Positions 15,849-35,667 of a stretch of 64,000 bases of DNA are shown here, one piece after another. How positions within the stretch are numbered: the first letter of the stretch is position 1; every line of letters begins with the position of its first letter. The notes under the pieces were generated by a model, which saw nothing but the letters and a program-made list of their open reading frames with translations, searched no databases and had not been told where the DNA came from. The position numbers and the translations under genes are program-made. The DNA is from Candidatus Hydrogenedentota bacterium (lineage in GTDB: Bacteria > Hydrogenedentota > Hydrogenedentia > Hydrogenedentales > JAEUWI01): assembly GCA_019637335.1 (NCBI GenBank), contig JAHBVV010000008.1, forward strand, positions 1-64,000, in the 5' to 3' direction.

Positions 15849-16232
15849 TTTGCCGCATACTGTGCCAGAAAGCGCCCGGGGAATCAAGATCTCGGGGGGG
15901 CGTTGCGCGTTGCGCGGCGTCGGCGGGCGCGTGGCGGTTGCCGGAGTGGCAGATTTTCATCGGCGCGGCCGTTCAAAATGCGTTGCGTCACCCGTTAAGG
16001 ATGAAAACGGACGGCGGCTTCGCCGCCTGGCAGGCGGCGAAGCCTGCGCTCCCAGCCTTTTGCGCTTCCCCATTAAGACGTGCTGTGCCGTGGTTTGCTT
16101 GAGGCACATGTGGAGAAGATGGGGCGTGCAATCATCGGAGCAGTATGACATTGATCGGTCACGGCCAACCCCGTCCGCGGCTGAGGAAATGCCTGCGTTC
16201 CCGTTTCGATCTTGAGGGTATTATAAATCAAA
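15849..16232. other. Gene-free region between gcv leader and higBA
   Basis: No coding frame with family features was seen in this stretch. It contains the perfect hairpin GGCGGCTTCGCCGCC (16013-16027), followed by GGCGAAGCCTGCGCTCCC. Similar text (GACGCCTGCGCTCCCAGCCTT) recurs near 56138, so this is another interspersed palindromic repeat. The gcv promoter should lie in the right part but no clear -10/-35 was found. Confidence 0.45.
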
Positions 16233-16256
16233 GTTGCGTATTGCGCAATAAGCAAC
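16233..16256. promoter_or_regulatory. Palindromic operator upstream of higBA
   Basis: The 24-bp dyad has half-sites GTTGCGTATTGC and GCAATAAGCAAC, with only one mismatch between arms. It directly abuts the -35 box at 16257. HigA-type antitoxins bind palindromes at their own promoter, so this is the likely autoregulatory site. Confidence 0.65.
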
Positions 16257-16285
16257 TTGACTTCCTTATATTTCCATGCTATCCT
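16257..16285 (+). promoter_or_regulatory. Sigma70-type promoter of the higBA operon
   Basis: TTGACT (16257-16262) and TATCCT (16280-16285) are separated by 17 bp, 10 bp before the ATG of the higB remnant. The local sequence is AT-richer than its surroundings. Confidence 0.7.
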
Positions 16286-16295
16286 CTAATTCAGG

Positions 16296-16799
16296 ATGGA
16301 AGTTGAATTCGACGATAACGACCTGGAACGCCTGCTCTTCGACCCCGGATTTCGGTCGCGCCTCCCGGCGGAGGTGGCTGTCGATTTAACGTGTGCGGTG
16401 AGCGCATTTCCTACAATTTTGTGCTAACGCCCTATGGCGTCATTCCCGCGAAAGCGGGAATCCAGTGGAATTCGGAGGTTTGTGCGTTCGCGTCGCTGGA
16501 TCCCCGCGTTCGCGGGGATGACGAATCTGCTCATTCCTTCTATAGTGTAGGGTGAGTTAAGTAAACCGACAGCCCCGGATGTGGTGAAGATGTACCGGAA
16601 ACGAATGCAGTTCATCCTGAACGCGCCGGACGAACGCTCCTTTCGGACGATGAAGAGCTTTCATTTCGAGGAATTGCGCGGCGACCGCCAGGGCCAACAT
16701 TCCATCCGGCTGAACAGACAATATCGCCTTGTGTTCCGGTTCGAGGGCGTTTCGCCCGAGAAGCGGCTCGTTGTGCTCGCAGTTGAGGACTACCACTGA
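16296..16799 (+). pseudogene. higB: higB (RelE/ParE-family toxin) split by a 201-bp element
   Basis: The 5' part (16296-16374) encodes the start of a RelE/HigB-type toxin: MEVEFDDNDLERLLFDPGF, then RSRLPAEV. Translation then enters the inserted element and stops at TAA 16425. The 3' part (about 16582-16799) continues the same protein: VKMYRKRMQFILNA, then RTMKSFHFEELRGDRQGQHS, then LVFRFEGVSPEK. Removing the element and one target duplication restores ...GAG GTG GTG AAG ATG... (Glu-Val-Val-Lys-Met) with no frameshift. The toxin would be an mRNA endonuclease. The 3' fragment could still be translated from GTG 16581 or ATG 16590 but lacks the N-terminal helix. The neighbouring antitoxin gene is intact. 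Confidence 0.9.
16375..16575. mobile_element. MITE-like element, copy 1, inserted in higB
   Basis: The 201-bp non-coding element has terminal inverted repeats TGGCTGTCGATTTA and TAAACCGACAGCCC. It is flanked by near-identical 6-bp direct repeats CGGAGG (16369-16374) and CGGATG (16576-16581). The interior has two inverted palindromes (CATTCCCGCGAAAGCGGGAA and GGATCCCCGCGTTCGCGGGG). A second copy of exactly the same length lies at 35331-35531. It encodes no transposase, so it would move in trans. Confidence 0.88.
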
Positions 16800-16800
16800 T

Positions 16801-17919
16801 ATGGCAATCTCCACGAACACCCTCGTCGAAGTCTTCCCGCCCGGCGAGTATATCCAGGACGAACTGGAAGCGCGCGGCTGGCTCCAGACCGATCTCGTGG
16901 ATATTCTGGGCGTGGACAAGAAGACCGTCAGCGATATCATCGCGGGAAAGCGGAGCATCACGCCCGACATGGCCGTGCTTATCGGCGAGGCCTTCGGCAC
17001 CGGTCCCGAAGTCTGGCTGAATCTGGACAACGCGTACCGCCTGCATCACACCCGATGCGGCGCGGACCGCGTCCGGGAGGTATCGCGCAAATCCGAACTG
17101 TACGCGAAGTATCCCATCCGCCAGATGGCCAACCGCGGCTGGCTCAGCCAGACCAAGGACATGGCGCTGTTGGAACAGGAACTGGCGGCGTTCTTCACGC
17201 CGGAGGACCTGGGTTTCGCCGCGCGGCGCTCGGGCGATGAGGCGAAGGAGCCCCTGCAACTGGCCTGGCTCTACCGCGCTCACCACCTCGCCAGGACCCT
17301 GCCCGCCGAGCCCTTTTCCGAGACCGCCCTCGCCCGGGCCTTTCCCGAGCTGAAGACGCTCCTCCGCGACCCGGCCGACCTCGTCAGGCTCCCGGAGATC
17401 CTCGCCCGCGCGGGCGTCCGCATTCTGATTGTCGAAGCGCTTCCCACCTCCCAGATCGACGGCGTCTGTTTCTGGCTCGATCAGAAAATGCCCGTAGTCG
17501 CGCTATCCACCCGGCTCGATCGCATCGACAACTTCTGGTTTACCCTGATGCACGAGTTGATGCACGTCAAATACGGCCACGGCCGCGAACGCGCCATGCT
17601 CGACGTCGATATCCTGGGGCGCAAGGACGATATCCCCAAGGAAGAGCGCCTCGCCAACGAAGGCGCGGCGGAATTTTGTGTGCCCCAGGCGGAACTCGAA
17701 GCCTTCATCGCCCACACCCGCCCCGGGTTCTCCATGGCGAAGATCACTGCCTTCGCGGAGGACATTCAGGCGCACCCGGGGTTGGTGGTGGGCCAACTGC
17801 AGCACCGGGGCGTGATTGAATACCGGCAGCACCGGGGAGCGCTGAAGAAAGTGCGGTCGGCGCTGCTGGCGGACGTGGCGTTTGATGGGTGGGGGGAGGT
17901 TGCGACAACAACCGCTTAA
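16801..17919 (+). CDS. higA: HigA-type antitoxin fused to an ImmA/IrrE metallopeptidase domain
   Basis: The 372-residue protein has an N-terminal HTH of the HigA family: LVEVFPPGEYIQDELEARGW, then QTDLVDILGVDKKTVSDIIAGKRSI (split here for reading), then GTGPEVWLNLDNAYRLH. Its C-terminal half is an ImmA/IrrE (DUF955) peptidase with zinc motif MHELMHVKYGH (HELMH) and a downstream NEGAAEFC carrying the third ligand. It should neutralise HigB and repress the operon; the peptidase part may control antitoxin or repressor turnover. The ATG follows the higB stop by 1 bp. Its toxin partner is broken, so it may now be a free-standing regulator. Confidence 0.9.
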   Translation: MAISTNTLVEVFPPGEYIQDELEARGWLQTDLVDILGVDKKTVSDIIAGKRSITPDMAVLIGEAFGTGPEVWLNLDNAYRLHHTRCGADRVREVSRKSELYAKYPIRQMANRGWLSQTKDMALLEQELAAFFTPEDLGFAARRSGDEAKEPLQLAWLYRAHHLARTLPAEPFSETALARAFPELKTLLRDPADLVRLPEILARAGVRILIVEALPTSQIDGVCFWLDQKMPVVALSTRLDRIDNFWFTLMHELMHVKYGHGRERAMLDVDILGRKDDIPKEERLANEGAAEFCVPQAELEAFIAHTRPGFSMAKITAFAEDIQAHPGLVVGQLQHRGVIEYRQHRGALKKVRSALLADVAFDGWGEVATTTA

Positions 17920-17982: not shown

Positions 17983-18195
17983 TCAGGCGAACTGAAGGCG
18001 GCCCTTGGGTTCCGGAATGGGGCGACCGAGTTCCCTGGCGGTCTCGACCCAGTGTTGAATCACCACTTGCGCATTGGCCAACGCTTCCTCATAGGAGGCG
18101 CCATCCGCCATGCAACCCGGTAGCTCCGGCACGTCGACAACGAACGCCTGATCTTCTTCGCTCCAGAATATGATGAGTTCATACTTAATCGACAT
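17983..18195 (-). CDS. hicB: HicB-family antitoxin
   Basis: The 70-residue protein has the degenerate RNase-H-like HicB fold: YELIIFWSEEDQAFVVDVPE, then LPGCMADGASYEEALANAQ and VVIQHWVETARELGRPIPEP. It should neutralise HicA. It lacks a long C-terminal DNA-binding tail, ending soon after EPKGRLQFA, so autoregulation may need another factor. It overlaps the hicA 3' end by 11 bp. Confidence 0.9.
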   Translation of the reverse strand: MSIKYELIIFWSEEDQAFVVDVPELPGCMADGASYEEALANAQVVIQHWVETARELGRPIPEPKGRLQFA

Positions 18196-18445
18196 CGGTT
18201 GATCCCAACTGGTACTTGATGAGGAGGTTTCGTATCTGCTTCACCTGATACGCCTTCGCGCTCTTTCCCCTGGGTTGAATATTGATGATTTCGTCCACGC
18301 CTTCTTTGGTGAAGATGTGGTGGCCGCCCCGGCAACGCTCATCGAAACCCAATCGCTGAAGCAGCTGGCACAACATGCTGAAATCGGTGTTACTATCCGA
18401 CGCGCCCACGAGTATAGCAGCGCGAAGCTTCTCATACTTTCCCAT
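18185..18445 (-). CDS. hicA: HicA-family mRNA interferase toxin
   Basis: The 86-residue protein begins MGKYEKLRAAILVGASDSN and carries the double-stranded RNA-binding-like HicA fold. The catalytic-His stretch is LGFDERCRGGHHIFTKEGV, followed by INIQPRGKSAKAYQVKQIRN. Relatives usually have GSHHIF, and here it is GGHHIF with the His kept. ATG 18445 is preferred because the frame's upstream 37 codons have no homology. No good promoter was seen upstream. It lies next to the broken higBA locus, so this is a small toxin-antitoxin island. Confidence 0.88.
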   Translation of the reverse strand: MGKYEKLRAAILVGASDSNTDFSMLCQLLQRLGFDERCRGGHHIFTKEGVDEIINIQPRGKSAKAYQVKQIRNLLIKYQLGSTDVD

Positions 18446-18889
18446 GCACGCCCAATCGATTTGGCACTCCCTCGCACCCGCGCGGATGCGAGCCAATTCA
18501 AGTGTCGGATCTTCTATCTCTGCAAGTATACCATGGCGCCAACTCACCGTTGCCAAAGAAAACAGCGCACAGCTTGTCTATTTGGCGCGAGGTGGTGTGA
18601 TGTCGGTTGCGGTCGTTGCCGCGGCCAGGAATGCCCGCGATCCCTTGCTGCCGGATCGCGTGGCGCGGGTGTTCGCTTGAGGTTGCTGCGGCCTCGGAAT
18701 GTCCGAGGCCCCATGGGAGCCCGGATCGATAAGCTATCGTATGCATGGCATCGCCGCTGGCGGCCAAACGTGCTACAGCGCCACACCCGGCAGCCCGAGA
18801 ATTCGATTGCTTGCGCGGCATGTTACAATGCCCTATGCTGTCTGTTTGCAGGGATGAATGGCCGAAGAAGGCCCTGAAGGGCTAGCGAG
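18446..18889. other. Gene-free region with solo repeat end
   Basis: No gene was recognised in this stretch. Bases 18616-18643 (TTGCCGCGGCCAGGAATG followed by CCCGCGATCC) match the inverted ends of the 3433/56428 repeat core in 25 of 28 positions, so a lone end or short relative of that element lies here. Confidence 0.5.
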
Positions 18890-35249: not shown

Positions 35250-35667
35250 TTTAGCCGTCTGAAGTAGTCACCCTCGTCGCACCTAACGGTGGCGGCTCTC
35301 GGTGAACGAACACCGTCATCCCCACGAAAGGGGCTGTCGGTTTAACTGGTGCGGATGGCTCAAAACCTACAAGTTTGTGCTACTGTCTTACAGCGTCATT
35401 CCCGCGAACGCGGGAATCCAGTGGAATTCGGAGGTATGTTCGTTCGCGTCGCTGGATCCCCGCGTTCGCGGGGATGACGGATCTGCTCATTCCTTCCATA
35501 GTGTAGGGTGCGTTAAGTAAACCGACAGCCCCGAAAGTGGGGATCCAGAGACCATGCTACGTTAACCTCGCAAACCCACTGGATTCCCGCGTTCGCGGGA
35601 ATGACGAATACATCCCGTGTAAGTAAGGCATCTCGTATCGGCGGACGCCTTACTTCAGACGGCTGAA
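35250..35667. repeat. Composite repeat with outer inverted ends, hosting a nested MITE
   Basis: Outer inverted ends TTTAGCCGTCTGAAGTAG (from 35250) and TACTTCAGACGGCTGAAG (ending about 35668) bound a region rich in palindromes. The left inner part contains CGTCATCCCCACGAAAG, interrupted by the 201-bp element and resumed as CGAAAGTGGGGATCCAG. The right part (35570-35667) repeats 15-125 of this window. No gene was recognised between lolD and menF. Confidence 0.75.
35331..35531. mobile_element. MITE-like element, copy 2, with exact 6-bp target duplication
   Basis: The 201-bp element has inverted ends GGGCTGTCGGTTTA and TAAACCGACAGCCC, flanked by CGAAAG on both sides (35325-35330 and 35532-35537). 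Removing it and one CGAAAG restores the palindrome CCCCACGAAAGTGGGG, so the insertion split an existing palindromic repeat. It is the same length as the copy in higB and highly similar along its whole length. Confidence 0.9.

What the first reader, a model, noticed from the sequence alone, without database searches (positions are those of the whole stretch)
16296..16799. higB toxin gene split by a MITE, antitoxin left intact
The RelE/HigB coding sequence is interrupted at a Val codon by a 201-bp element with inverted ends. Flanking 6-bp direct repeats (CGGAGG / CGGATG) let the empty site be rebuilt exactly as an in-frame toxin. The adjacent HigA-ImmA/IrrE antitoxin and the promoter/operator are intact. 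This is a natural toxin knock-out by a non-autonomous element, leaving an antitoxin-repressor that may have a new role.
Basis: partly seen in the sequence, partly recalled or inferred. Interest (0 to 1): 0.82.

Follow-up and report, generated by a model that had tools for sequence, protein, structure and literature searches.

The report
Mini-transposon splits a HigB-like gene
A 201-base parasitic element, one of dozens in this genome and evidently moved by a single IS1182-type transposase, has landed off-target inside the first gene of a toxin-antitoxin-like pair; the break is real, but related systems suggest that the broken gene may be the safety catch rather than the toxin.

Summary
A 201-bp element (16375-16575) interrupts a RelE/HigB-like gene at codon 27 and is flanked by an imperfect 6-bp duplication (CGGAGG/CGGATG). 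Each fragment, compared separately, matches uninterrupted 98-aa relatives, and the fragments meet at the same residue. The element belongs to a family with 27 full-length copies plus fragments in this genome. Its likely driver is one intact IS1182-family element with the same ends. Both normally insert into the four-base loop of CGTC-1 REP palindromes; the element carries two such palindromes, so it also nests inside itself. The higB site is one of only two without a REP. "MITE" and "knock-out" are supported, but "toxin lost, antitoxin left" is not secure. The intact neighbour is a HigA helix-turn-helix fused to an ImmA/IrrE peptidase, closest in PADLOC to PD-lambda-2 B. In E. coli PD-lambda-2, B is the toxic part when overexpressed and HigB-like A rescues. 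Four relatives carry A-B-C; here A is broken and C is absent from the genome. Best reading: a recent, largely random disruption of an incomplete PD-lambda-2-like locus. A new role for B has no evidence. The REP-loop-seeking, REP-carrying element is the most interesting part.

The parts
16231..16258 (.). 14+14-nt inverted repeat just upstream of the gene, overlapping the -35; likely operator (inferred)
   Evidence: (I4, 93% complementary)
16257..16285 (+). sigma-70-like promoter TTGACT-17-TATCCT; its -10 ends 10 nt before the ATG, so the mRNA would be leaderless or nearly so
   Evidence: sequence
16296..16374 (+). 5' fragment of the HigB-like gene A (codons 1-26 and first base of 27)
16369..16374 (+). 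left copy of the 6-bp target duplication, CGGAGG
16375..16575 (+). 201-bp MITE; differs from the family consensus at only 3 positions, including its first base (T for G)
16375..16388 (+). left terminal inverted repeat
16562..16575 (-). right terminal inverted repeat
16438..16465 (+). CGTC-1-type REP (CGTC tag, 8-bp stem, 4-base loop, CCA tail) inside the MITE
16496..16523 (-). second, inverted CGTC-1-type REP inside the MITE; its loop is where other copies nest
16518..16546 (+). promoter-like match at the right end of the MITE (ATGACG-17-TATAGT), pointing to gene B; consensus match only
16576..16581 (+). right copy of the target duplication, CGGATG (one mismatch)
16582..16799 (+). 3' fragment of the HigB-like gene A, open to its stop; keeps the C-terminal EDYH
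16801..17919 (+). gene B: HigA-type HTH fused to an ImmA/IrrE (M78) peptidase with HELMH motif, 372 aa, intact; PD-lambda-2 B-like

Best explanation
Shown: a 201-bp MITE with the ends of an IS1182-family element sits in codon 27 of a HigB-like gene. Inferred: the IS1182 transposase at G000:C1 made the insertion in trans, recently, at an off-target site, because the site is not one of the REP-loop hairpins it normally uses. Shown: translation of gene A now stops after 43 codons, and the downstream fragment lacks the first 26-27 residues. Inferred: gene A is functionally null, and gene B is made only at a low level, since the transcript would carry a strong hairpin and about 370 untranslated bases before B. 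Inferred: the locus was a PD-lambda-2-like A-B(-C) module in which A and B neutralise each other, and it had lost, or never had, C; it no longer works as a defence or addiction module. B persists because the insertion is young, because its expression is low, or because B without A is tolerated, as in two plasmid relatives.
For: Family of 27 full-length copies plus fragments. Same ends and 6-bp duplication on a 1859-bp IS1182 element with a 605-aa transposase (NF033551, 363.8 bits, cut-off 270), single copy in the genome. 20 of 27 MITE copies rebuild a REP stem of at least 6/8 pairs around the duplication (chance 0.8% per site); higB scores 4/8. The higB copy is 98.5% identical to the consensus and both gene fragments are otherwise open, so the insertion looks young. 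Uninterrupted relatives. B matches PD-Lambda-2_B over 345 residues. A-B-C order in four relatives; C absent from the whole genome. B-C without A in two plasmids. MITE RNA fold -97.4 kcal/mol, z -7.8.
Against: The duplication has one mismatch and the first element base is altered, so insertion followed by exchange or mutation cannot be excluded. No near-identical strain with the empty site was found; the closest intact A is 56% identical over the 3' fragment. No PADLOC hit for A or C, so PD-lambda-2 likeness rests on B and gene order. No expression data; an outward promoter-like site in the MITE could keep B expressed.
Confidence: 0.75

Rival explanations
1. Canonical type II pair: A is a HigB ribonuclease toxin, B its antitoxin and autorepressor. 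The MITE removed the toxin at no cost and the orphan antitoxin simply persists, perhaps still repressing its own promoter or neutralising the paralogous HigB at C15.
For: A fragment belongs to PF05015 HigB; B passes the HigA cut-off (TIGR02607, 56.3 against 47.7 bits); operator-like repeat intact; an intact related HigB-HigA pair exists at G000:C15.
Against: B is a long peptidase fusion matching PD-Lambda-2_B, a system where B, not A, was toxic on overexpression (PMC9519451). B-C without A occurs in plasmids.
Confidence: 0.3
2. Selected rewiring: the MITE replaced gene A by a new promoter (16518-16546) and a truncated A product, giving B a new, A-independent regulatory role.
For: Promoter-like match at the MITE end pointing to B; the -10 TATAGT is shared by young copies; B open and intact.
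Against: The -35 is 4/6 only; -10 is CATAGT in most older copies; no good ribosome-binding site before the 3' fragment; no sign of selection could be measured.
Confidence: 0.08
3. Assembly artefact, or a normal part of the gene in this lineage.
For: The element is a multi-copy repeat, a common cause of misassembly.
Against: A misjoin would not place a 6-bp near-duplicate at the exact family ends; the flanks are two halves of one gene in frame; intact relatives in several phyla lack the 201 bp.
Confidence: 0.02

Closest known systems
PD-lambda-2 anti-phage system (E. coli; PMC9519451)
   Same: HigB-like A followed by HigA-HTH fused to an ImmA/IrrE peptidase B; several relatives have a third gene C directly after B
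   Different: A is broken and C is absent here; A and the relatives' C have no PADLOC hit; no defence was tested
HigBA type II toxin-antitoxin (PF05015 / TIGR02607)
   Same: Toxin-like gene first, HTH partner second, inverted repeat over the promoter
   Different: B is 372 aa with a peptidase domain, against about 100 aa in ordinary HigA
IS1182 family insertion sequences and their MITEs
   Same: 605-aa DDE transposase, matching terminal repeats on IS and MITE
   Different: 6-bp duplication made in the loop of CGTC-1 REPs; ISPse1 of Paracoccus is listed with 4 bp (PMC3281130)
REP-targeting insertion sequences (PMC1525189)
   Same: Insertion at one fixed point of a REP palindrome
   Different: That paper lists IS3, IS110, IS4, IS256 and IS5 families, not IS1182; here the mobile element also carries REPs and so carries its own target
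CGTC-1 REPs, dRS3 in Neisseria (PMC3733652)
   Same: CGTC tag, 8-bp stem, 4-base loop, CCA tail, inverted dimers
   Different: Here a dimer is embedded between IS1182 ends; the paper found no transposase associated with CGTC REPs

Membership tests
MITE (non-autonomous DDE element) | short, no transposase, terminal inverted repeats | tested here: met
   201 bp, 12/13 inverted ends; only short ORFs inside
MITE (non-autonomous DDE element) | multiple copies with target-site duplications | tested here: met
   27 full-length copies; 13 with perfect and 8 with 5/6 six-base duplications
MITE (non-autonomous DDE element) | autonomous partner with the same ends | tested here: met
   IS1182 element L084:781-2639, GGGCTGTCGATTTA/TAAACCGACAGCCC, duplication CGAAAG
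MITE (non-autonomous DDE element) | mobilised in trans by that transposase | not testable with these tools
   needs a transposition assay
HigB (PF05015) | sequence similarity over the domain | tested here: met
   3' fragment 31.4 bits, cut-off 27; 5' fragment matches intact relatives
HigB (PF05015) | ribosome-dependent mRNA cleavage | not testable with these tools
   biochemical
HigA | TIGR02607 score above cut-off | tested here: met
   56.3 against 47.7 bits
PD-lambda-2 | B: HigA HTH plus ImmA/IrrE peptidase | tested here: met
   PD-Lambda-2_B E 1.8e-42, residues 9-353; HELMH motif
PD-lambda-2 | A: HigB-like gene upstream, functional | tested here: not met
   present but interrupted; intact relatives' A have no PADLOC hit; not established whether the library holds a model for A
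PD-lambda-2 | C: third gene, required for defence | tested here: not met
   relatives' C absent from window and genome
CGTC-1 REP | CGTC tag, 8-bp stem, 4-base loop, CCA tail | tested here: met
   16438-16465 and 16496-16523 against PMC3733652
IS1182 family | transposase above the NCBIfam cut-off | tested here: met
   NF033551 363.8 against 270 bits

The most novel reading that the evidence does not exclude
The MITE and its IS1182 partner form a self-feeding system: the transposase inserts into the tetraloop of CGTC-1 REPs, and the MITE carries a CGTC-1 REP dimer, so each insertion adds new targets and spreads REPs. This would be a concrete transposase able to disperse CGTC REPs, for which none was known in the 2013 survey (PMC3733652).
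Probability: 0.5. Interest if true: 0.65.

Novelty: new variant of a known kind. Interest (0 to 1): 0.45.

Why it matters
The broken gene alone is an ordinary event. Two points go further. First, if PD-lambda-2 polarity holds, this locus keeps the toxic partner and has lost its neutraliser, a natural test of how such a cell survives. Second, the element links IS1182 transposition with CGTC REPs, whose means of spread was an open question in PMC3733652.

Tried and rejected
Assembly error and 'normal part of the gene': rejected. A described RNA in the element: no Rfam match above the gathering score in 15900-17000. Empty site in a close relative: none in 68 genomes of the phylum nor in the 84,980-species set searched with the 3' fragment; metagenomes could not be scanned. 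Viral contigs: no relative of B or C and no match to the MITE end. The higB target as a REP-like hairpin: a 5-bp stem with a 4-base loop (16361-16374) lies there, but the duplication is offset by 4 bases from the loop, so it does not follow the rule of the other copies. A remnant of gene C downstream of B: none. Some search hits were first read on the wrong strand and redone.

Full report
OBSERVATION. The gene starting at 16296 reads HigB-like for 27 codons, runs into foreign DNA and stops after 43 codons. HigB-like coding resumes at 16581 and ends at 16799. Between them lies 16375-16575, 201 bp with inverted ends. The 3' fragment matches Pfam HigB-like_toxin (E 2.8e-7) and the 5' fragment matches the N-termini of intact relatives (E down to 5e-7), each tested separately. 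Four relatives of 98 aa (same genus G001, own paralogue at C15, G056, a Nitrospirae MAG) are uninterrupted, and in all four the 3' fragment begins at residue 27, where the 5' fragment ends. The flanks were not joined.

THE ELEMENT. A search of the own genome found 98 matches, of which 27 are full-length copies, all 201 bp. With ends fixed by the family (GGGCTGTCG...CGACAGCCC), 13 of 27 copies have a perfect 6-bp duplication and 8 have 5/6. In 20 of 27 the bases outside the duplication pair as a stem of at least 6 of 8, against 0.8% of random sites. The target is the palindrome ATYCCCRC-NNNN-GYGGGRAT; the duplication is the four-base loop plus its closing pair. The genome holds 144 intact palindromes of this type. 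They fit CGTC-1 REPs, called dRS3 in Neisseria (PMC3733652). Of the copies that fail the stem test, all but two have a REP half on at least one side; the two are the higB copy and the one at C8:80797 (read by eye).

THE DRIVER. One pair of ends lies 1859 bp apart (G000:C1, L084:781-2639) and encloses a 605-aa transposase of the IS1182 family (363.8 bits, cut-off 270). It is the only copy in the genome and itself sits in the loop of a REP inside another MITE copy, with duplication CGAAAG. That this transposase moves the MITE is inferred from the shared ends and duplication.

SELF-NESTING. The MITE contains two inverted REPs (16438-16465, 16496-16523). Copies at C11, C5, C4 and C3 are inserted in the right-hand REP loop of an older copy, giving 138-bp steps. 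REP dimers also occur alone, one 94% identical to the MITE core with no MITE ends around it (C1:359987-360072). A sister species (G002) has a related MITE at 76% identity, again in REP loops.

AGE. The higB copy differs from the consensus at 3 of 201 positions and both gene fragments are free of further lesions, so the insertion looks young. The mismatch in the duplication and the altered first base are the only marks against it.

THE OPERON. Gene B (16801-17919) passes the HigA cut-off and carries an M78 (ImmA/IrrE) domain with HELMH. In PADLOC it is closest to PD-Lambda-2_B, E 1.8e-42 over residues 9-353. PD-lambda-2 was found in E. coli as a three-gene anti-phage system in which overexpressed B was toxic, A rescued, and C was needed for defence (PMC9519451). 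Among relatives, A-B-C occurs in G056, the Nitrospirae MAG, a Paraburkholderia plasmid and an Achromobacter phage; A-B in Acaryochloris, Arthrobacter, Chondrocystis and Micrococcus; B-C with no A in Methylocapsa and Mesorhizobium loti. In the Thauera plasmid only a C-terminal piece of C remains. Here C is absent from the window and the genome. Neither A nor C of the relatives has a meaningful PADLOC hit, and whether the library holds models for them was not established, so this is 'PD-lambda-2-like', not a proven member.

MECHANISM. Shown: A is interrupted, B is open. Inferred: A is null, because the 3' fragment lacks the N-terminal strand of the RelE fold (own knowledge of the fold) and has no convincing ribosome-binding site. 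Inferred: B expression falls, since the ribosome leaves the message at codon 44 and a hairpin of -97 kcal/mol (z -7.8) and about 370 untranslated bases precede B. A promoter-like match at the MITE end (16518-16546) might offset this; its -10 is shared by young copies but not most old ones. Which partner was toxic cannot be settled from sequence.

VERDICT. Its reading as a harmless toxin knock-out with a repurposed antitoxin is unproven, and the nearest characterised system points the other way. The most interesting outcome is the IS1182/MITE pair that seeks and carries CGTC REPs. Interest 0.45 for the whole.

Noticed in passing
L101:1193-4564; L100:1452-4576; L053:1923-5145; L065 (partial): Relatives of gene B lie in a roughly 3.1-3.4-kb element: divergent IS1-like transposase, optional HigB-like A, B, C, and a convergent 'histone H1'-like small gene, between inverted repeats (GGTAGTGGGTCAGTTTGAAATT type). 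The M. loti copy has a perfect 8-bp flanking duplication (CACCAGCG). It looks like a transposon carrying a PD-lambda-2-like module.
   Followed up: partly
G000:C1:314580-316438 (L084:781-2639): Single intact IS1182-family element inserted in the REP loop of a MITE copy; likely driver of the MITE family.
   Followed up: yes
G000:C11:83769-84315, C5:218843-219250, C4:88898-89478, C3:294300-294773: Nested or tandem arrays of the MITE with 138-bp steps, from insertion into the MITE's own right-hand REP loop; some outer right-hand remnants are missing.
   Followed up: partly
window 35331-35531: A second full-length MITE copy (89% identical) in a REP loop, followed by a further REP at 35583.
   Followed up: no
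window 17983-18556: HicB-like and HicA-like genes on the opposite strand directly after gene B: a second toxin-antitoxin pair side by side.
   Followed up: no
window 16257-16296; L032, L046, L033, L053: The -10 box ends about 9-10 bases before the ATG of the HigB-like gene here and apparently in relatives, suggesting leaderless or nearly leaderless mRNAs (read by eye).
   Followed up: no
G002:C575, C657, C108, C221: Sister species carries a related MITE at 76% identity with ends GGGCCTGTCG, also in REP loops.
   Followed up: partly
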